Below, one piece after another: positions 1 to 9,503 of a stretch of DNA of 64,000 nucleotides. Positions within the stretch are counted from its first letter, which is position 1; each line of letters starts with the position of its first letter. This DNA comes from Propioniciclava sp. MC1595 (GTDB lineage Bacteria; Actinomycetota; Actinomycetes; Propionibacteriales; Propionibacteriaceae): contig NZ_CP071870.1 in assembly GCF_017569205.1 (NCBI RefSeq), positions 2,852,001-2,916,000 on the forward strand. Reading direction: 5' to 3'. The notes under the pieces were generated by a model. It was not told the origin of the DNA. It saw only the letters and a list, made by a program, of their open reading frames with translations, and searched no databases. Both the position numbers and the translations under genes were made by a program.

Positions 1-1621
1 CGTCGGCCAGCGTGGCGATGCGGGCGGGCGCGCCGTAGATGGCGTTGATCTTGGCGACACTGCGTTCGAGTTGGGCGCGCTCCACGTCGTCCAAGCCCTC
101 GGTGATGCGGTCAGCGGCGTCGTCGAAGTCGTCCTGGGTGACCCCGTCGGCGAGCGCGACCTGCACGAGCCGGGGCTCGAACACCACGGGCACCGTCGCG
201 CCGTCGGCGACGGCGCGGGAGAGGTCGTAGACGTCGATGTCGGGGCCGAACACGTTTCGGGTGTCGCGTTCGGGCAGGGAGATCGGCGTGCCGGTGAAGG
301 CGATCAGGGTGGCATGCGGCAGGGCGTCGCGCAGGTGCCGTGCGTAGCCGTCGAGGTCGTCGTAGTGGCTGCGGTGCGCCTCATCAACGACGACGATGAT
401 GTTCCGCCGGTCCGACAACAGGGGATGGGACGCCCCGGTGTCGCGCTCGGTCTGGGTGAGCCCGAACTTCTGCAGGGTGGTGAACAGGATGCCGCCGGTG
501 CGGCGTCCGGTCAGTTCGGCGCGGAGTTGTGTTCGGGTCTTGACGGCGAGGGGGCTCTCGGCGAGCAGCCCCGAGCGCTCGAAGGCTCCGAAGAGTTGCC
601 CGTCGAGTTCCTTGCGGTCGGTGATGACGACCACGGTCGGGTTTTCCAGCAGCGGGTGGCGTTGGACGAGGTGGGTGTAGAACTCCATCTCCAACGACTT
701 GCCCGCTCCCTGCGTGTGCCAGACAACGCCGGCTTTCCCGTCCGTGCGGTAGGCGATGATGGTCGCTGCGATGGCCCGGGCGACGGCGAAGTACTGGTGA
801 GGTTTGGCCACGAGCTTGGCGATGCCGCCGTCGGTGACGGAGAACGACACGTAGTTGCGGGCGAGCTGACCGAATCGGTCGGTCTGCAACAGCCCGGCGC
901 AGAGTGCTTCGAGTTGCGACAGGGCCTCGCCGTCGACACCTTCAGCGTCGGGCGGGTAGGGCGTGCCGTCATCGTCGACGTACCACGGGGCGTAGTGGTT
1001 GAGCGGCGTGAACGGCGTCCCGTAGCGCGCGAGGATACCGTCGCTGATCACGGTCAGGACACAGAACCGGAACGCCAACGGGAACTCGCGCAGGTATGTC
1101 TGCAGTTGGGCGTGGGCGGCCGCGAGGTGCGCCTGTTCTGAGCCAGCCCGCTTCAGTTCGACGATGGCGACCGGCAGCCCGTTGCAGTAGAGCACGAGGT
1201 CGAACCGCCGCAGGCCCTCAGGGCGGCGGATCGTCACCTGGTTGGCGACCAGGTAGTCGTTGTCGGCCGGTTCGGCGCTGATGACACGCAGCGTGGGACT
1301 CTGCTCGACACCATCGTCGTCCACGTAGTCGAGGCGATAGCCAGCGGTCAGCCACGCGTGGGCGCGCATGTTCTCGGTGATGGCATCGGCCGAGGTGGGA
1401 GTGAGTATCTCCTCGCGTGCCTGCACCAACTGTTCATTCGGGACTCCGGGGTTGAGTTTGCGCAGGGCGTCTAGCAGGCGTCCGGGGATGGCGAGGTCCT
1501 CCCAGGTCTCACGTTCGCCCGATCCGGGCGCGATGGCCTCGCCGGTGACGGGGACCCACCAGTCGCCGATCCATTCAAGGGCATCAGCTTCGTGCATGGC
1601 TTCGGTGCCGTCGCGGGTCAT
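1..1621 (-). CDS. hsdR: Type I restriction enzyme R subunit HsdR (N-terminal 540 codons, cut by window edge)
   Basis: Restriction and translocation subunit of a type I R-M system. Reading on the minus strand from ATG at 1621 gives an uninterrupted frame to the window edge. An N-terminal PD-(D/E)xK nuclease core is visible (D141, then VELK with E155 and K157). It is followed by an SF2 motor with Walker A HTQGAGKS at about residues 302-309, DEAH at about 413-416, and motif III-like AFTGTP at about 441. The start codon overlaps the stop of the upstream DUF1016 gene in an ATGA, so it is the last visible gene of the R-M operon. The C-terminal half, including the rest of the motor and the HsdM-contact region, lies outside the window. 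Identification is firm from motif order and operon context. Confidence 0.96.
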   Translation of the reverse strand, partial: MTRDGTEAMHEADALEWIGDWWVPVTGEAIAPGSGERETWEDLAIPGRLLDALRKLNPGVPNEQLVQAREEILTPTSADAITENMRAHAWLTAGYRLDYVDDDGVEQSPTLRVISAEPADNDYLVANQVTIRRPEGLRRFDLVLYCNGLPVAIVELKRAGSEQAHLAAAHAQLQTYLREFPLAFRFCVLTVISDGILARYGTPFTPLNHYAPWYVDDDGTPYPPDAEGVDGEALSQLEALCAGLLQTDRFGQLARNYVSFSVTDGGIAKLVAKPHQYFAVARAIAATIIAYRTDGKAGVVWHTQGAGKSLEMEFYTHLVQRHPLLENPTVVVITDRKELDGQLFGAFERSGLLAESPLAVKTRTQLRAELTGRRTGGILFTTLQKFGLTQTERDTGASHPLLSDRRNIIVVVDEAHRSHYDDLDGYARHLRDALPHATLIAFTGTPISLPERDTRNVFGPDIDVYDLSRAVADGATVPVVFEPRLVQVALADGVTQDDFDDAADRITEGLDDVERAQLERSVAKINAIYGAPARIATLAD

Positions 1622-2706
1622 GGCCCCTCCTTGGGGTCTGAAAGTTCGGCTTCGAGCTCTTCGATGCTGGGCAGGGACGCCGCCAGCTCGGCCGGCAGGT
1701 CGGTGGTGAGCTCGGACGCCCACTCGGCCACACCCATCGGGTGGGTGTGGCCGCGCAGCGCGTACTCGGCGACGACGCTGTTCTTGCTGCGGCACAGAAC
1801 GAGCCCGATGGTGGGGCCATCTCCGTCGGCTGCCAGCAGTTCGTCGGCAGCCGCGAGGTACATGTTGAGCTGGCCGAGATCACGGGGGTCGAACGGCGTG
1901 GCCTTGAGCTCGATGATGACGAAGCACCGCAGGCGGACGTGGTAGAAGACGAGGTCGCACACGAACTCGTCACCGCCGAGCACGAGCCTGACCTGCCGCC
2001 CGTAGAGGGCGAAGCCCTGCCCAAGTTCGAGCAGGAAGTCGGTGACGTGGTCGAGCAACGCTCGTTCCAGATCTCGTTCGAGCTTGGTTTCCGTGACGGA
2101 CAGGAAGTCGAACAGGTAGGGGTCCTTCGTGAGCTGCTGGGCGAGTTCGCCGTGCGGGCCGGGGACGGTCTGATCGAAGTTCGTGATGGCCTTGCCCGCA
2201 CGCTCGTGGAGGCGGGTCTCGATCTGGTGGATCAGGACGCGTCCGCTCCAGCCCTCGTGGGCGGCCTGGGCCGCATACCAGAGGCGCTGATGCTTGTTGG
2301 GTACGCGATCAAGCAGGGCGAGTTGGTGGTACCACGGCAGTTGTGCAAGCGGCGCTTGCACAACCTCCTCGTTCGACCAGGCGTCCGCGAACGCCCGCAT
2401 GTACTTGAGGTTGCGGGGCGAGAAACCCTTCGCATCCGGAAAGGCCTCCCGGAGGTCGGCCGAGAGCCGCTCGATGACCTTGGTGCCGTAGCCCTCACGG
2501 TCTTGTCGGGCGAGGATCTCACGGCCGATGTGCCAGTAGCTGAGGACGAGTTCGCTGTTGACGGCCGCCAAAGCCCGCTGTCGCCCGGAGACGACGCGGT
2601 CGCGCACGGACGCCAAGAGGTCGCCGTACCACTCGGGCATGGTCCCGCGTTGCGGAGTGGCAGGGAAGCCAACGTGCCCATCGGAGCTGGCGTCAGCGTT
2701 CTTCAT
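1618..2706 (-). CDS. DUF1016 (YhcG-type) PD-(D/E)xK nuclease-domain protein
   Basis: 362-aa protein of the DUF1016/YhcG family. The N-terminal helical DUF1016_N region covers about residues 25-170, with motifs SYWHIG (about 56) and QLPWYH (about 122). The C-terminal nuclease-like core covers about 190-340, with D251 and E266-L-K268 matching a PD-(D/E)xK site. Family members are often found near type I R-M genes; the precise role is not settled. The frame extends to a TTG at 2745, but ATG 2706 is preferred because it overlaps the upstream winged-helix gene by only 14 nt. Its stop is joined to hsdR by ATGA, so the two are probably co-translated. A perfect 11-bp inverted repeat lies inside the gene over the codons for VVQAPLAQL. 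Confidence 0.9.
   Translation of the reverse strand: MKNADASSDGHVGFPATPQRGTMPEWYGDLLASVRDRVVSGRQRALAAVNSELVLSYWHIGREILARQDREGYGTKVIERLSADLREAFPDAKGFSPRNLKYMRAFADAWSNEEVVQAPLAQLPWYHQLALLDRVPNKHQRLWYAAQAAHEGWSGRVLIHQIETRLHERAGKAITNFDQTVPGPHGELAQQLTKDPYLFDFLSVTETKLERDLERALLDHVTDFLLELGQGFALYGRQVRLVLGGDEFVCDLVFYHVRLRCFVIIELKATPFDPRDLGQLNMYLAAADELLAADGDGPTIGLVLCRSKNSVVAEYALRGHTHPMGVAEWASELTTDLPAELAASLPSIEELEAELSDPKEGP
2340..2364. repeat. Perfect 11-bp inverted repeat inside the DUF1016 gene
   Basis: GTTGTGCAAGC at 2340-2350 and GCTTGCACAAC at 2354-2364 are exact reverse complements with a 3-nt spacer. Nearly the same palindrome (TTGTGCAA...TTGCACAA) recurs at 10215-10243. Here it is inside coding sequence. 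Confidence 0.8.
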
Positions 2707-3079
2707 CGTCACCCCCGACCCAGCGATAGTGGAACCCTCGGCCAATGCGGCTGTGCGAGGACGGAGTCAGGAGGCCATCGGATTCGAGTTCCTTCAGGAT
2801 GGTCCCGACGTTCGAGGGGCTCGCCTCGACCAAAGCGCCCAACTCTGTTGTGCTGATCCTGCCGCGCGCCCGGGCGTACCGCAGCGCGATGGCAGAACGA
2901 GTCGGAACGGGTCGCTCTCGACGATGGTCGGCATAGGCCTCGGTCAGGTGGCGCGCCGCCGCCCCGGTCACCTTGTAGTCGACGTGCTCGCGCTCGGCCA
3001 AGCGACGACCGCCTTGGAGCGCCTCGATGTGGCGAGCGACCTCCTGAGCGACGGGATCTGGCCCGAAACCTATGGTCAT
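2693..3079 (-). CDS. Small winged-helix DNA-binding protein in the R-M operon
   Basis: 128-aa protein not assigned to a named family. The C-terminal half (about residues 65-122) has a winged-HTH pattern: ARGRISTTELGALVEAS, then a recognition-helix-like SNVGTILKELESDGLL, then a basic wing ending HYRWVG. The N-terminal half is helical and charged. It resembles the tail of AlbA_2/putative-DNA-binding ATPase proteins, so it could be a remnant of a longer protein; it could also be an independent regulator. It sits between hsdS (40-nt gap) and the DUF1016 gene (14-nt overlap) on the same strand, which suggests an operon member. Coding status is supported by this spacing and by a coherent protein composition. 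Confidence 0.7.
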   Translation of the reverse strand: MTIGFGPDPVAQEVARHIEALQGGRRLAEREHVDYKVTGAAARHLTEAYADHRRERPVPTRSAIALRYARARGRISTTELGALVEASPSNVGTILKELESDGLLTPSSHSRIGRGFHYRWVGGDDEER

Positions 3080-3119: not shown

Positions 3120-4307
3120 TCACAGCGCCTCCTCGACCGCATGCTCGGCGTCCTTGACGGTGAGCCGTCCAGACATCAACTCTGGGAGCAGCGTGTCCCG
3201 CAGTGTGGCCAGCGATCGAGACTCGTGCATCGCGGCCCGGGCTCGCTCGTGCAGTGGCCGGGCGATCGCTCCGAACTGGCGCATCACGTCCTCCGGCGCC
3301 CAGCGAACTGGCATCGTCTTGAATCGGCCGCGGCTCAGCTCAAGGAATGTGGCCCCATTCGCGACCGCCAGGTAATCGGACACGCGCGATTGCATCTCGT
3401 GAAACAACCACATGTCGAGCTGCGAGTCCTTGGGGCGGACGACGATGAAGCCTTGATTCACGGCGGTCGGGCCTCCCGCGAGGGCGAAGGCACCGATGGT
3501 CGCCCGCGACGTCATGAGAATCGATCCAGCGGGGTGAAGCTCCGAGGCACACGCAGCCAAACCTGCACTCGTAAGATGGCGGGATGTGTCTTCCAGATAG
3601 GGCGCCTGCAAGGCCGTGACATCGGTCGGGGTCGCCCAACGGATTTCGCCGCCCCAGTAGTCATCGGTCTTCGTGCTCGGCGTCCCACCGCCGAAGACGT
3701 CCGCCACGTTCCCATAGGTCGGCCCCTCACCAGCTGCCTGCACTGACTGGCTGAAATACTCGGCCGCGAGGTCGTTCAGGGTCCGGGAAAGGTCGCTGTT
3801 CGCGTCGATCTTGTCGTCCAGCGCGCCGAGAACCTCGGCGATCGCCCGCTGGTCACCCAGACGTGGGAACGGCAAGCGGATCTTAGACATGTCTGACACG
3901 TTGAGGCTGGAGAAGACGGCACCCACATTGAGCAGCCGAGCCACTTCTGAGTGCCACGCGGGACTCCTCGTAACCCACCTCAGGTACCCCGGGTGAACGG
4001 CTCTCCCGTCTGACCGCAGGATTACCAAGTTCTGCCCGATAGCGCACGGGCGATCATCCAGTAGCGCCGCCGTGTCCCCGACGCGTCCTCGCCGCGTCAC
4101 GATCACATCACCTCTCTGGGGCCGCGTTCGTCGAGTCCACTCGACAAGGTCTTCATCGCTGATGCGTCTCGTCGTCCCCCAGGTGACTCGACCGTCCTGG
4201 ATGTCTGGGATCGCGATGTACGGGTGCCCGCTGAGTTGGGCTAGCGGAGTTCGGTGATCACAATCCAGCACGCGCACACCCACATCGGCCAAAGCGGCAC
4301 TCCTCAT
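3120..4307 (-). CDS. hsdS: Type I R-M specificity subunit HsdS
   Basis: 395-aa DNA-recognition subunit. It has the usual two target-recognition domains (about residues 5-165 and 205-350). Each is followed by a conserved long helix: LGDQRAIAEVLGALDDKID in the middle and a related helix ending TLLPELMSGRLTV at the C-terminus. The TRDs set the recognised sequence and cannot be decoded by eye. ATG 4307 overlaps the hsdM stop by 4 bp (ATGA), giving the classic hsdM-hsdS coupling. The length is normal for the family and the frame is intact. Confidence 0.95.
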   Translation of the reverse strand: MRSAALADVGVRVLDCDHRTPLAQLSGHPYIAIPDIQDGRVTWGTTRRISDEDLVEWTRRTRPQRGDVIVTRRGRVGDTAALLDDRPCAIGQNLVILRSDGRAVHPGYLRWVTRSPAWHSEVARLLNVGAVFSSLNVSDMSKIRLPFPRLGDQRAIAEVLGALDDKIDANSDLSRTLNDLAAEYFSQSVQAAGEGPTYGNVADVFGGGTPSTKTDDYWGGEIRWATPTDVTALQAPYLEDTSRHLTSAGLAACASELHPAGSILMTSRATIGAFALAGGPTAVNQGFIVVRPKDSQLDMWLFHEMQSRVSDYLAVANGATFLELSRGRFKTMPVRWAPEDVMRQFGAIARPLHERARAAMHESRSLATLRDTLLPELMSGRLTVKDAEHAVEEAL

Positions 4308-5929
4308 CGCACCCGCCCCAACTGTTCCCGGACGACCTGCGCGAGTCGCTCTGACTCGTCGAGCTGAGCCAGCAAGTCAGCGGTCAACGACGCGATCCTG
4401 GCGGCCATCTCGGCCGGGTCCACCTCGACTTCAGCGGCGCCCACATAGCGGCCGGGCGTGAGGGCGTACCCGGCGTCCTTGATCTCGGCCAGGGTTGCCG
4501 AGCGGCAGAACCCGGGCACGTCGGCGTACTCCGTCCCCTTCTCCTGAGCCGACACTCTCCCCCGCCAGGCGTGGTACGTGTCGGCGATCTTCGCGATGTC
4601 CTCGTCAGTGAATGCTCTGTTCGCACGGTCGACCATGTGGCCCAGTTCGCGGGCGTCGATGAACAGCACCTCGCCGCGGCGGTCGACGTTCCCCTGCTTG
4701 CCGGCCGATTTGTCCATGGCGAAGAACCACAGGCACACCGGAATTCCCGTCGATCGGAACAACTGCGTCGGCAGGGCCACCATGCAGCTCACGAGGTCGG
4801 CGTCCACGATCTCAGCGCGGATTGCCCCCTCGCCGCCCGAGTTCGACGACATCGACCCGTTGGCCAGCACGACCCCGGCCGAGCCTCCCGGCGCGAGGTG
4901 CGAGAGGATGTGCTGCAGCCACGCGTAGTTGGCGTTGTTCGCAGGCGGGACGCCGTAGCGCCAGCGGCCGTCCCGCTCGTTGCGCGCCCAGTCCTTGATG
5001 TTGAACGGCGGGTTCGCTAGCACGAAGTCAGCCTTCAGCCCGGCGTGCAGGTCGCGCGCGAACGTGTCGCCCCACACGGGCCCCAGGTCGGCTCCGATGC
5101 CGTGAATCGCCAGGTTCATCTTCGCCATCCGCCAGGTGCGCTCGTTGAGCTCCTGTCCGTACACGTGGACGTCTTGGGGGTGGCGTCCGTGCGCCTCGAC
5201 GAACTTCTCGGTCTGCACGAACATGCCGCCCGACCCACAGCAGGGGTCGTACACCCTGCCCGACAAGGGCTCCAGCACCTCGACCAGCACCCGCACCACC
5301 GAGGCGGGGGTGTAGAACTCGCCGCCGCGCTTGCCCTCGGCCGCCGCGAACTTCTCCAGGAAGTACTCGTACACCTCGCCCAGCAGGTCGCGCGCCTTCG
5401 TGGCGCCCTGACCGGTGAAGCGCGCGTTGTTGAACAGGTCGATCAGTTCACCAAGGCGGCGTTGATCCACGCTGCTGGAGTTGAAGATGCGTGGCAGCGT
5501 CGCTTTGAGCGCTGGGTTTGCGTCCATGACCAGATCCATTGCGTGGTTGACCCGCACCCCGATGTCACCGGCCTTGGCGTTGCGCGCCAAGGACGCCCAG
5601 TGCGCGTCAGACGGGATCCAGAAAACCCCAGCAGAGGTGTACTCGTCGATGTCGCCCACCAAGGCCTCGATCTGCTCCTCGTTGTACCCCTGCCCGCCGA
5701 GCTCGGCAGCGATCAGCTCCCGGCGCTCGTCAAAGGCGTCCGAGACGTACTTGAGGAAGACCAGGCCGAGAATGACGTCCTTGTACTGCGAGGCGTCCAT
5801 GGAGCCGCGCAGCTTGTCGGCCGCCTTCCACAACGTGTCCTTCAACTCCTTGGCCGACGTGGGTGTCTGCGGCTCGGCAGCCTTCTTCGGACGCCCCCGG
5901 CGCGGCAGGGCGTTGGGCAACAGGGTCAT
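4304..5929 (-). CDS. hsdM: Type I R-M DNA N6-adenine methyltransferase HsdM
   Basis: 541-aa modification subunit that transfers a methyl group from SAM to adenine N6. SAM-binding motif I DPCCGSGGMF is at about residues 228-237 and the catalytic NPPF at about 306-309. Before them come the HsdM N-terminal helical domain (LRGSMDASQYKDVILGLVFL, about 40-60) and the GGEFYTP motif at about 202. The start is ATG 5929, inside a longer frame, because it overlaps the upstream stop as ATGA. It is the catalytically complete methylase of the operon, in contrast to the gene just upstream. It lies second in the minus-strand operon. Confidence 0.96.
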   Translation of the reverse strand: MTLLPNALPRRGRPKKAAEPQTPTSAKELKDTLWKAADKLRGSMDASQYKDVILGLVFLKYVSDAFDERRELIAAELGGQGYNEEQIEALVGDIDEYTSAGVFWIPSDAHWASLARNAKAGDIGVRVNHAMDLVMDANPALKATLPRIFNSSSVDQRRLGELIDLFNNARFTGQGATKARDLLGEVYEYFLEKFAAAEGKRGGEFYTPASVVRVLVEVLEPLSGRVYDPCCGSGGMFVQTEKFVEAHGRHPQDVHVYGQELNERTWRMAKMNLAIHGIGADLGPVWGDTFARDLHAGLKADFVLANPPFNIKDWARNERDGRWRYGVPPANNANYAWLQHILSHLAPGGSAGVVLANGSMSSNSGGEGAIRAEIVDADLVSCMVALPTQLFRSTGIPVCLWFFAMDKSAGKQGNVDRRGEVLFIDARELGHMVDRANRAFTDEDIAKIADTYHAWRGRVSAQEKGTEYADVPGFCRSATLAEIKDAGYALTPGRYVGAAEVEVDPAEMAARIASLTADLLAQLDESERLAQVVREQLGRVR

Positions 5930-7965
5930 GCGGATTTCCTCTCCACGGTCACAGAACACAGGCCAGCCCCCAGCGCGCTGGCCAGGGTCGACATCAAGTC
6001 ATGGGTGGCGCCCAAGGCATCCTCGAGCAGGCGCTGCCGCTCGGCCAGGGCAGCCGCAGCCTCGGAGGCCTCTCGGATCGCGCCGGGTGGCAACAGGGTG
6101 ATGGGCCACCGGCGCCAGTCGTGGGACTGGCCGGACGCGAGGGCCAACTCAGCAGCCATCAAGGCGGGCACCAGACGCTGCGGCTTGGGCTCGTCGGCCC
6201 TACCCTCGGCATGAGCTCGGACCTGCGCCTCGGTCGGTATGTGGCACCGCAACACCCGCGAGGGGGCCGCGACCACGAGACCGCCGCGGTCGTCGAGCAG
6301 AACGATGGGGGTGCCTCGAGTCGCGAAGATGAGGTCACCGGGTTCAGTGACTCGTAAGTGCTCATGCGCACCGAGGGCCCTGAAGGTGAGGCCGGCCAAG
6401 TGGTCCCGCGAACGCAGCTCACGCGGATCCCGCAGGACACCCACATCCGGTGTCGGAACCAGATCGCTGTCACTGAGCGAGGCACCCCGGATCAGGGTCA
6501 CGTGCCCCAATACCACCGCCTCACCGAGGGTGATCCGCTGCACCAGGCCCGGCGACTCGTTGGGGACCACGGTCAGCGCCCACCCATTGCTCACAGGGCG
6601 CGACACAGCCGGGACCAGGTCGTCCAGTAGCCGGGGCAGGCCGCGGGTCGCCTTCATGCGGGCGTCCAGATGGGGGGACACCAGGTCGCCGTCGGCCATC
6701 ACCAACTCGGCCTGACGCACGAAGCGGCCAGGGGCGGCGTGGCCGCGCCGCTCTGGACGCCCGACCAAGGCCGCTGCGATGTCGTCAACCAGCGCGGACG
6801 GGTTCTGGGTGAAAGGTGCCGAAACATCCGCGCAGTAGGTCTCGGCGGGGTCGTGGGCAGGGCCCAGCACCCATATGGCCGTGCGCAGCGCCGGATTGGT
6901 CGGCAGCAACCCTGCCGGCAGCCGCACGATGGCTCGCGTGAACCCCGACTGCAGGGCCTGACGCCTCTCCTCACCCGCCGGCGTCAGCGGGACGCCCGAC
7001 GCAGGGGGCCGCCCGCGGCGCACGACCCGCAGCGGGCCGGTCAGGGCCGACGCCGCACCCACGACGACGGCCCGCATACTGGCCGAGCACTGCAGGGTCA
7101 GTTCGTTGAGCCACACCAGGTCTGCCTCGCGATCGTCGTCATCGAGGCGGACGACCAAGACTGCCTCGTTCGGCAGACCCGTCCCGTCGCCGGCTTCGAG
7201 CGTCGACACCCGGACGCCGTGGGTGGCCAGCCAGCGCCGCGCCAAGCGCGCCTCCCTGTCGGACGCCTCCCCGAACAAGGCCACTGTGGCGTGGGGGCGC
7301 TCTTCCAGCCAATCGGGCAGGTTGGCGAGCAGCACGAGATCGCGGGCGCGCGGCAGGCACAGGACCGGCGCTTCGAAGCCAGCCTCATCGGCAGCGCTCA
7401 TGGCCACGTCGAGAACGAGGTCGGCGAACGCAGCGGCCACCGGGCCCGACCCCGGAGCATCCGGCGTGCGGCGCGATCTCAACAGGGCGTCGAACGGCTC
7501 AGCGGCGTCCATCGCGCCCCGCACGAGCAAGGATGCATAGGCCGACAACCGTCCAAGGTCATCGCCCAGCGCCTCGACCTCGCGGCGCAGGAACTCATCG
7601 TCCGGGTCCCTCTCGTCGGCCAGGTCAAGGAGGTCATCGGGGTCACCCGGGAGCGGACCCGTGAGCGCCTCGAGACACAGCAGGGCCGACAAGCCGTGGA
7701 AGAGTCCGGCGTCCGTCAGCACTCGACGACCCGAGAACTGGAAGGCCACGGCGTCCTCGGCGGCGCGGGGGTTGCGGCCGAGGCCGGTGCGGGTCAGCCA
7801 CGCCACCACGTCGGCGCAGGAGAAGAACTCTTGGCCACCCTCGCGGCCCACCGGCTCGGGGAAGGGATCACGTTGCGCGCGCCGCATGCGCCAGTTGGTC
7901 ACGACCGGGCGCCCGACCTGCGCCAGCAACGCCACATCGGCCAGCGACACCAAGTCCTCAACCAT
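5926..7965 (-). CDS. HTH + degenerate N6-methylase-like + specificity-like protein at the head of the R-M operon
   Basis: 679-aa protein. An N-terminal MerR-like HTH (about residues 5-35, SLADVALLAQVGRPVVTNWR) is followed by a region whose layout recalls actinobacterial HTH-N6-methylase proteins. Where motif I (DPxxGSG) and NPP(F/Y/W) should be, no such motifs are present; the alignable stretch reads VALFGEASDREARLARRWL at about 230. The last 200 residues look like half an HsdS: a beta-rich TRD-like part (EPGDLIFATRGTPIVLLDD) and a C-terminal helix. It is the first gene of the operon, with a strong AAGGAGGA ribosome-binding site just before ATG 7965, and its stop overlaps hsdM as ATGA. It is probably non-catalytic; regulation or DNA targeting is an inference. 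Confidence 0.8.
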   Translation of the reverse strand: MVEDLVSLADVALLAQVGRPVVTNWRMRRAQRDPFPEPVGREGGQEFFSCADVVAWLTRTGLGRNPRAAEDAVAFQFSGRRVLTDAGLFHGLSALLCLEALTGPLPGDPDDLLDLADERDPDDEFLRREVEALGDDLGRLSAYASLLVRGAMDAAEPFDALLRSRRTPDAPGSGPVAAAFADLVLDVAMSAADEAGFEAPVLCLPRARDLVLLANLPDWLEERPHATVALFGEASDREARLARRWLATHGVRVSTLEAGDGTGLPNEAVLVVRLDDDDREADLVWLNELTLQCSASMRAVVVGAASALTGPLRVVRRGRPPASGVPLTPAGEERRQALQSGFTRAIVRLPAGLLPTNPALRTAIWVLGPAHDPAETYCADVSAPFTQNPSALVDDIAAALVGRPERRGHAAPGRFVRQAELVMADGDLVSPHLDARMKATRGLPRLLDDLVPAVSRPVSNGWALTVVPNESPGLVQRITLGEAVVLGHVTLIRGASLSDSDLVPTPDVGVLRDPRELRSRDHLAGLTFRALGAHEHLRVTEPGDLIFATRGTPIVLLDDRGGLVVAAPSRVLRCHIPTEAQVRAHAEGRADEPKPQRLVPALMAAELALASGQSHDWRRWPITLLPPGAIREASEAAAALAERQRLLEDALGATHDLMSTLASALGAGLCSVTVERKSA

Positions 7966-8132
7966 GGATTCCTCCTTCCCTTGGTCAAGATCATGCTCCC
8001 TCGACGCGCGGTTGTCGATCGCATACAGCTTCTAACTATGCAAACACCGGTTTTCATCTTTTACAGTTGCCCTGCCGCCCACCGGGCGTGACAGTGGTGT
8101 TGGCCGAACAACCACGAGAAAGGACAAGTGCC
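7966..8132. promoter_or_regulatory. Divergent promoter region of the R-M operon and the coiled-coil gene
   Basis: 167-bp relatively A+T-rich spacer between two divergent starts. The most A+T-rich stretch is about 8015-8065. A short GCATA...TATGC inverted repeat is visible near 8021-8041. The ribosome-binding sites are AAGGAGGA on the minus side (about 7970-7977) and GAAAGGA on the plus side (about 8118-8124). No unambiguous -35/-10 pair was picked out. Confidence 0.45.
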
Positions 8133-9503
8133 ATGACCAGCATCACCCGCCCCCGAGCCCGCTTCGAGGCGACCGGGCCCAGCCTCCAGATCGAGGCGCT
8201 CACCATCACGGACGACGCCGTGCTGCGCGAGTGCCGGCACTGGGCGACGGGCGAACGCGGCCCCGCCGCGGACGCCGACGCCCTGGCCGGTGCCGACCTC
8301 ACCAGCTTCGTGATGCAGGCGATGACCATCGGCGCGACCGCACTCACGACCGCCGGCACCACCCAAACGTCCTACTCGGTCGAGAACCTCATTGCGGACG
8401 CCGAGAAGCGCTCCACCGCTGCCTCGGAACTCGCCACGCAGCAGACCGCGAAGGCCGTGGAGACGGCGTCCAAGACGCTCACCCAGGCGACCGCCGACAC
8501 GGCCAAGCAGGTGGCCGAGTCACTGGAGAAGGTTACTGCGGAGGTCACCCGCGAGATCGGTCGTCTGGTCGGGGGCGAGGACCCTGAGCTGATGCGCCGT
8601 CTTCAGCCCCTGCTCGACACGACCATGCAGACGATGAAGGAGGCCACGCTGAAGGACACCGCCGGCCTGCTCGACAAGGTCGCCCGCCAGTTCAACCCGG
8701 CCGACCCCGCGTCTCCGATGGCTGTTCAGATGCGGACCCTCACCGAGGCCCAGGAGAAGCAGGCCGAGGTCTTCACCGCGGAGCAGAAGGCACTCATGGG
8801 CAAGGTCGACGAGCTCACGGCCGCCATCAGGATCAAGCAGGCCCACGACCATGTGGTGGCATCGACCGCCCTCAAGGGCGTCACCTACGAGGAGAGCACC
8901 CACGCCGCCTTGTCCTCTCTGGCCGCGGGTCTGGGCGACGAGTACCACGAGACGGGCACCATCACCGGCCTCAAGACCCGCAGCAAGAAGGGCGACGGCG
9001 TCCTGTCGCTGCAGGGCGGGGACACCAGGGTCGTCATCGAGATGACCGACTCGGCACGCCCTCGTTGGACCGACTATCTTCGGGAGGCCGAGGAGAACCG
9101 CGGAGCGCTCGCCTCGCTCGGGCTCGCAAAGTCCACCGATCAGTTGGGGGGCCAGACCCTGCTCGTTCTCGGGCCGCGTCGGCTGGTCCTCGCCTACGAC
9201 CCCGAGTCTGACGACACGCAACTGCTGCGCTGCGCACTCCTGCTGTTGCGTCAGGCAGCCGAAGCGGCGGCGAGTCGCGTCGACTCCGGGGAGATCGCCA
9301 CAGCCGACGAAGCGTTGGCCGAGGCCCTGACCAAGCTCGAGCAGCTCGATCGGATCCGCAAGAACGCGGGTCTCATTCGTCGGGGGGCGGATGCGATCGA
9401 GACCGATGCCACCACGTTGCAGACCGAACTCCTTCGGCTGCTGAGCAAGGCGCGGAGCGTTCTCGCGGGAGTGCCCCTGGACGCCGGCGCCCCCGCAGCC
9501 TGA
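8133..9503 (+). CDS. Coiled-coil protein with a possible degenerate restriction-endonuclease-like domain
   Basis: 456-aa protein, not recognised as a named family. Residues about 85-240 are Ala/Thr/Glu/Lys-rich and predicted to form long coiled coils. The C-terminal part (about 245-400) has a signature reminiscent of PD-(D/E)xK folds: TYEES (E253/E254), GDG (D288) and VVIEMTD (E303), but T305 stands where the catalytic lysine is expected. The end is again helical. ATG 8133 is chosen over an in-frame start at 8067 because GAAAGGA lies just upstream. It is transcribed divergently from the R-M operon and may belong to the same accessory island. Function is unknown; a nuclease or nucleic-acid-sensing role is only an inference. 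Confidence 0.75.
   Translation: MTSITRPRARFEATGPSLQIEALTITDDAVLRECRHWATGERGPAADADALAGADLTSFVMQAMTIGATALTTAGTTQTSYSVENLIADAEKRSTAASELATQQTAKAVETASKTLTQATADTAKQVAESLEKVTAEVTREIGRLVGGEDPELMRRLQPLLDTTMQTMKEATLKDTAGLLDKVARQFNPADPASPMAVQMRTLTEAQEKQAEVFTAEQKALMGKVDELTAAIRIKQAHDHVVASTALKGVTYEESTHAALSSLAAGLGDEYHETGTITGLKTRSKKGDGVLSLQGGDTRVVIEMTDSARPRWTDYLREAEENRGALASLGLAKSTDQLGGQTLLVLGPRRLVLAYDPESDDTQLLRCALLLLRQAAEAAASRVDSGEIATADEALAEALTKLEQLDRIRKNAGLIRRGADAIETDATTLQTELLRLLSKARSVLAGVPLDAGAPAA

What the first reader, a model, noticed from the sequence alone, without database searches (positions are those of the whole stretch)
5926..7965. Type I R-M operon headed by an HTH protein with a methylase-like core but no catalytic motifs
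The first gene of the operon has an HTH, a region laid out like an N6-methylase but without DPxxGSG or NPPx, and a half-HsdS-like tail. It is translationally coupled to a complete hsdM. A pseudo-methylase carrying its own targeting module could act as a regulator, a phase or host-state sensor, or a second specificity arm for the R-M complex. I do not know of a described role for such a protein.
Basis: partly seen in the sequence, partly recalled or inferred. Interest (0 to 1): 0.7.

Follow-up and report, generated by a model that had tools for sequence, protein, structure and literature searches.

The report
Dead methyltransferase controlling Type I restriction
The first gene of this bacterial DNA-restriction operon encodes a protein built like a DNA methyltransferase whose catalytic sites are gone; comparison of about 80 relatives indicates that it now works as a dedicated gene switch that binds a palindrome in front of its own operon and, where the cutting-enzyme gene stands apart, in front of that gene as well.

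Summary
Window 5926-7965 (-) encodes a 679-aa protein, X: HTH, methylase-like core without motifs I or IV, half-HsdS tail, coupled (ATGA) to an intact hsdM. X is not a lone decayed gene: 82 of 82 relatives lack both motifs, dN/dS is 0.15-0.34, and X almost always heads X-hsdM-hsdS-hsdR.

A palindrome, GATAA-N6-TTATC, stands before X: exact in 58 of 81 loci (0.02 expected), a variant in 78. A -10-like TAnnnT follows at one spacing (32-35 nt, or one helical turn further) in 70 of 78, without a -35. When recognition-helix residue 21 changes, the half-site changes. Where hsdR lies far from hsdS the palindrome recurs before hsdR (15 of 20 exact); where hsdR is contiguous, 0 of 33; X-less systems, 0 of 19. 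In the hsdM clade X and intact hsdR occur together or not at all (70 both, 12 neither).

Best reading: X is a dedicated transcriptional controller, probably an activator, of a Type I system, made from a dead methyltransferase. The 'second specificity arm' idea fails: X's tail stays 86-100% identical while HsdS is swapped. Direction of control and what the core senses are inferred. The window's own operator is a diverged variant.

The parts
5926..7965 (-). gene X, 679-aa HTH / pseudo-methyltransferase / half-HsdS protein
   Evidence: ORF, homologs, AF2 model
7780..7956 (-). HTH domain of X (about residues 4-62), recognition helix RPVVTNWRMR
   Evidence: alignment A1; HTH_17 hits in 3 relatives; covariation with half-site
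6691..7380 (-). methyltransferase-like core (about residues 196-425) without motif I or IV
5935..6543 (-). half-HsdS-like tail (residues 475-677) ending in a long helix
   Evidence: hhalign to both HsdS halves; DSSP helix 627-666
8039..8056 (-). candidate operator of this X, TGAAAACCGGTGTTTGCA; diverged from the family's GATAA-N6-TTATC
   Evidence: arms conserved and spacer changed against L034; only exact match in the genome
7990..7995 (-). possible -10 element CATGAT, 44 nt after the 16-bp operator core (weak match to consensus)
   Evidence: sequence; spacing equals the 44-nt class
4304..5929 (-). hsdM, intact, overlaps X stop as ATGA
   Evidence: Pfam, motifs
3120..4307 (-). hsdS
   Evidence: Pfam Methylase_S, PADLOC Specificity_I
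2693..3079 (-). small wHTH gene between hsdS and hsdR
   Evidence: Pfam HTH_24
1618..2745 (-). YhcG / DUF1016 PDDEXK nuclease gene
   Evidence: Pfam
1..1621 (-). hsdR, running off the window start; intact in the genome (1109-aa ORF in L032)
8133..9503 (+). divergent gene (456 aa, no confident Pfam hit), a recurrent neighbour of X
   Evidence: homologs in 14 other X loci

Best explanation
[quoted passage not shown] It binds, presumably as a dimer, through its N-terminal HTH to a 16-bp palindrome (family consensus GATAA-N6-TTATC) in the promoter of the X-hsdM-hsdS operon and, where hsdR has its own promoter, at hsdR too. The palindrome sits at fixed helical phase upstream of the -10 (centre near -53, or one turn further) at promoters without a recognisable -35, so X most likely activates them: a functional counterpart, in Type I systems, of the C proteins of Type II systems. 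Shown by sequence: the palindrome, its position, its covariation with the HTH, its second site at hsdR, and X/hsdR co-occurrence. Inferred: direct binding, activation rather than repression, dimerisation through the half-HsdS helix, and a structural or sensing role for the dead core.
For: GATAA-N6-TTATC exact in 58/81 upstream regions against 0.02 in shuffles, 70/81 with at most one mismatch; class variants in 78/81. TAnnnT 32-35 nt downstream in 63/78 (shuffle mean 2.4) with no -35 consensus, and in 7 more at 44-45 nt, one turn further. Residue 21: Val goes with GATAA in 67 of 69 rows, Ala with GTTAA or GTTTA in 6 of 6, with 4 independent switches on starred branches of a tree built without the HTH. 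A second exact palindrome upstream of hsdR in 15 of the 20 loci where hsdR lies more than about 3.5 kb from hsdS, 0/33 when hsdR is contiguous; many of these hsdR promoters show the same 33-35 or 43 nt spacing. X-less loci: 0/19. Genome scans: one site in G000, at its paralogous X; one each in five other genomes with X and hsdM and in the orphan-X genome, two in G836 at X and hsdR, none in three X-less genomes. Named plasmid records fetched afterwards: 3/4 exact, one with 1 mismatch, all with TAnnnT at 32-33. X and intact hsdR: 70 both, 12 neither, 0 mixed.
Against: No binding or expression data. The window's own X has a diverged helix and no GATAA-N6-TTATC; its operator rests on two close sequences and its -10 is a poor match. 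8 of 78 X promoters show no TAnnnT at the expected spacing (some starts are uncertain). Separated hsdR genes at shorter distances (0.8-3.2 kb) mostly lack a site, perhaps because they are still in the operon. Independent-pair tests are small: 5 pairs, p 0.0625 for X/hsdR; 4 pairs, p 0.125 for residue 21. Some genomes hold 1-3 further sites not next to X or hsdR; the four stretches inspected lack X or hsd genes and the -10 spacing.
Confidence: 0.8

Rival explanations
1. X is an autorepressor: it binds the same palindrome but blocks transcription until phage infection or M/S saturation frees it, as proposed for RptR.
For: RptR, the described Type I R-M regulator, is a repressor encoded first in its operon (PMC12255303). 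All palindrome evidence fits any DNA-binding regulator.
Against: The palindrome lies about -61 to -46, upstream of the -35 region, at fixed helical phase, with no -35 consensus; RptR sites overlap the -10 box. Loss of X would leave hsdR derepressed, yet no X-less, hsdR-plus locus was seen in the clade.
Confidence: 0.17
2. X is a subunit of the R-M enzyme, a catalytically dead second M-like arm that assembles with HsdM/HsdS/HsdR, as M1 and M2 do in PacII, and the HTH is secondary.
For: Core resembles HsdM and tail resembles HsdS; retained together with hsdR; two-M Type I complexes exist (PMC9613975).
Against: X's tail does not follow HsdS specificity changes; HsdM-HsdS-HsdR outgroup systems and orphan HsdM-HsdS systems lack X; an orphan X with its palindrome but no hsdM match exists (G086). 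It does not explain the palindromes.
Confidence: 0.07
3. X is a decaying methylase gene without function.
For: Catalytic motifs are lost.
Against: 82 of 82 relatives lack the motifs yet nearly all are open frames; dN/dS 0.15-0.34; fixed operon place and conserved palindrome.
Confidence: 0.01
4. X gives a second target specificity to the complex.
For: Half-HsdS tail.
Against: L051/L052, L032/L034, L154/L157, L050/L053: tail 86-100% identical, HsdS 28-36%.
Confidence: 0.02

Closest known systems
C (controller) proteins of Type II R-M systems
   Same: Dedicated HTH regulator encoded with the R-M genes, binding operators at its own and R promoters; needed for restriction (PMC3874152).
   Different: From general knowledge C proteins are small; X is 679 aa with a dead methyltransferase core and half-HsdS tail, and serves a Type I system. 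Homology not tested.
RptR, repressor of Type I R-M islands
   Same: First gene of a Type I island; binds palindromes at its own promoter (PMC12255303).
   Different: 9-kDa all-helical repressor of Gammaproteobacteria; 6-bp TAGCTA repeats overlap the -10; no methyltransferase part.
M.SsoII / M.Ecl18kI
   Same: A methyltransferase with an N-terminal regulatory region that controls transcription in its own R-M system (PMC3978073, PMC6100179, PMC3695355; abstracts only).
   Different: Active cytosine-5 methyltransferases of Type II systems; X has no catalytic motif and belongs to the N6-adenine type.
PacII M1M2S and other Type I HsdM proteins
   Same: Core fold; an operon with two M-like proteins (PMC9613975).
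   Different: M1 and M2 are both catalytic parts of the enzyme; X has no catalytic motif.
Actinobacterial HTH / N6_Mtase proteins (L065-L071, L150, L151, L170, L171)
   Same: Full or near full-length homologs of X with the HTH.
   Different: Most keep motif I (9 of 11), several keep NPPF/Y; none of these 11 has GATAA-N6-TTATC upstream.

Membership tests
N6-adenine DNA methyltransferase (HsdM/N6_Mtase) | SAM motif I and catalytic motif IV (NPPF/Y) | tested here: not met
   0 of 82 family members
N6-adenine DNA methyltransferase (HsdM/N6_Mtase) | methyltransferase fold | tested here: met
   AF2 model and Foldseek to Type I HsdM structures
HsdS specificity subunit | TRD plus conserved helical region, TRD tracking target changes | tested here: not met
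   The half is present by profile but does not follow HsdS swaps
R-M controller (C-protein-like) function | HTH with operator at own promoter | tested here: met
   By sequence only:
R-M controller (C-protein-like) function | operator at the R gene promoter | tested here: met
   Where hsdR stands more than about 3.5 kb from hsdS: 15 exact of 20 loci; 0/33 when contiguous
R-M controller (C-protein-like) function | activates transcription of R | not testable with these tools
   Only position and absent -35 speak for it
C protein family (sequence homology) | homologous small HTH protein | not tested
   X and C proteins were not aligned
Two-M Type I enzymes (PacII type) | two catalytic M subunits | tested here: not met
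   X lacks motifs I and IV

The most novel reading that the evidence does not exclude
X is an assembly sensor as well as a regulator: its HsdM-like core and HsdS-like helix bind free HsdM or HsdS, so that the amount of assembled M2S sets the activity of X on the X-hsdM-hsdS and hsdR promoters. Restriction would switch on only after protective methylation capacity has built up, in a Type I system controlled by a dead copy of its own enzyme.
Probability: 0.25. Interest if true: 0.85.

Novelty: new variant of a known kind. Interest (0 to 1): 0.74.

Why it matters
How Type I systems avoid self-attack when they enter a new cell has been explained mainly by proteolysis of HsdR (restriction alleviation, cited in PMC12255303). 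A dedicated controller with a defined operator, found in several actinobacterial families and on conjugative plasmids, would give many Type I systems a transcriptional answer to that problem. It would also be a clear case of a DNA methyltransferase turned into a transcription factor. The claim is directly testable with a reporter, and the operator gives a motif for finding such systems. In the named records read here X is annotated 'hypothetical protein'.

Tried and rejected
Second specificity arm: rejected by the HsdS-swap pairs. Recent decay: rejected. Two apparent X-plus, hsdR-minus loci (L184, L209) proved to have hsdR just beyond the stretch fetched, each with the palindrome before it. 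L058 was counted as X-broken: X is split into two ORFs, and an hsdR-like gene in two frames lies about 15 kb away. The distant HTH-methylases do not share the palindrome. Extra GATAA-N6-TTATC sites in G830, G864 and G764 were inspected: no X or hsd genes there and no -10 at the spacing, so set aside as probably other sites. Sequence-only HsdM likeness of X is too weak to rest on. Seven searches of the open-licence library brought up no paper that describes X; subscription papers and preprints were not searched.

Full report
OBSERVATION. The 679-aa ORF at 7965..5926 (-) is real. Its stop overlaps the hsdM start as ATGA and a strong ribosome site precedes its own start. The operon continues hsdM, hsdS, a small wHTH gene, a YhcG/DUF1016 nuclease gene and hsdR, which runs off the window. 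The window is G000:C1:2852001-2916000 of a complete 3.43-Mb genome; the nearest named record is an uncultured Propioniciclava MAG.

ANATOMY. X has no Pfam or NCBIfam hit. Profiles and alignment of 30 relatives show an HTH with near-invariant recognition helix, a core and a conserved tail. AlphaFold2 gives pLDDT 80.3; Foldseek places it among Type I methyltransferases. The tail matches both halves of HsdS. None of 82 family members holds motif I or IV, whereas a distant HTH/N6_Mtase family mostly keeps motif I. dN/dS is 0.15-0.34 over six pairs.

DISTRIBUTION. X occurs in 43 of 392 genomes of its order by a single-sequence search that also counts distant relatives, in about 19 full-length copies among 395 genomes of the class, and in 36 loci of one further family, nearly always directly before hsdM. 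One orphan X, with no hsdM or hsdR match in its genome, was seen (G086). Four plasmid records typed as conjugative (Arthrobacter, Paenarthrobacter, Streptomyces) carry X before hsdM-hsdS-hsdR, X annotated 'hypothetical protein'.

X AND HSDR GO TOGETHER. On an hsdM tree, 82 loci of the clade have known hsdR status: 70 have X and hsdR, 12 have neither intact, none is mixed. Several of the 12 keep remnants of X or hsdR. Independent losses number 5 on supported branches (sign test p 0.0625, the least such a number can give). Outgroup hsdM systems have hsdR without X.

THE TAIL DOES NOT SET THE TARGET. In L051/L052, L032/L034, L154/L157 and L050/L053 X is 84-100% identical (tail 86-100%) and HsdS only 28-36%.

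THE PALINDROME. Upstream of X lies GATAA-N6-TTATC: exact in 58 of 81, expected 0.02; allowing class variants, 78 of 81. A TAnnnT follows at 32-35 nt in 63 of 78 (shuffle 2.4), and at 44-45 nt in 7 more; no -35 consensus. Loci whose recognition helix has Ala at residue 21 carry GTTAA or GTTTA half-sites; Val carries GATAA with two exceptions. X-less loci have none (0/19). Where hsdR is separated by more than about 3.5 kb the exact palindrome recurs at hsdR in 15 of 20 loci, often with the same -10 spacing, while 33 contiguous hsdR genes have none. Whole-genome scans find the site mostly at X and hsdR. Plasmid records fetched afterwards agree.

THIS WINDOW. The window's X has the helix RPVVTNWRMR and no GATAA-N6-TTATC. 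The best candidate is TGAAAACCGGTGTTTGCA at 8039-8056: arms conserved and spacer changed against L034, the only exact match in the genome, with CATGAT at 44 nt. This is weaker than the family case. The genome's second X (near 3411647) has the canonical site.

MECHANISM. X most likely activates the X-hsdM-hsdS and hsdR promoters, like a C protein of a Type II system (PMC3874152). Activation rather than repression is inferred from position and phase. The half-HsdS helix may give the dimer that a palindrome calls for; what the dead core senses, if anything, is unknown. If X is needed to express hsdR, loss of X silences hsdR and loss of hsdR makes X idle, which fits the joint losses (inference).

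RELATION TO KNOWN SYSTEMS. RptR is a small repressor with sites over the -10 (PMC12255303). M.SsoII shows that a methyltransferase can regulate its own system (PMC3978073, PMC6100179; abstracts). PacII shows Type I enzymes with two active M subunits (PMC9613975). X differs from each as listed. I rate it a new variant of a known kind (R-M controllers), with an unusual origin.

Noticed in passing
window 8133-9503 (+): Divergent 456-aa gene beside X with no confident Pfam hit; homologs at 36-96% identity stand in 14 other X loci.
   Followed up: partly
window 1618-3079 (-); also L034, L158, L200, L239: Variable genes sit between hsdS and hsdR; a YhcG/DUF1016 nuclease recurs there.
   Followed up: partly
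L151, upstream of the HTH-methylase gene: A distant HTH-methylase with motif I has its own palindrome GTTGACGACGTCAAC, 45 nt before the start, with TAnnnT at 33 nt; single case.
   Followed up: no
L136, L138, L142: Orphan hsdM-hsdS pairs without X and hsdR follow an AlkZ-like DNA glycosylase gene.
   Followed up: no
L241 3813, L242 4108, L243 3945: Similar ATGATAA-N6-TTATCAT-like sites in three genomes, away from X; possibly another regulator's site.
   Followed up: partly
L065-L071: Loci with an HTH-methylase, several followed by a second HsdM, hsdS and hsdR; motif IV of the first is often altered (EPPI, APPF, DPTV).
   Followed up: no
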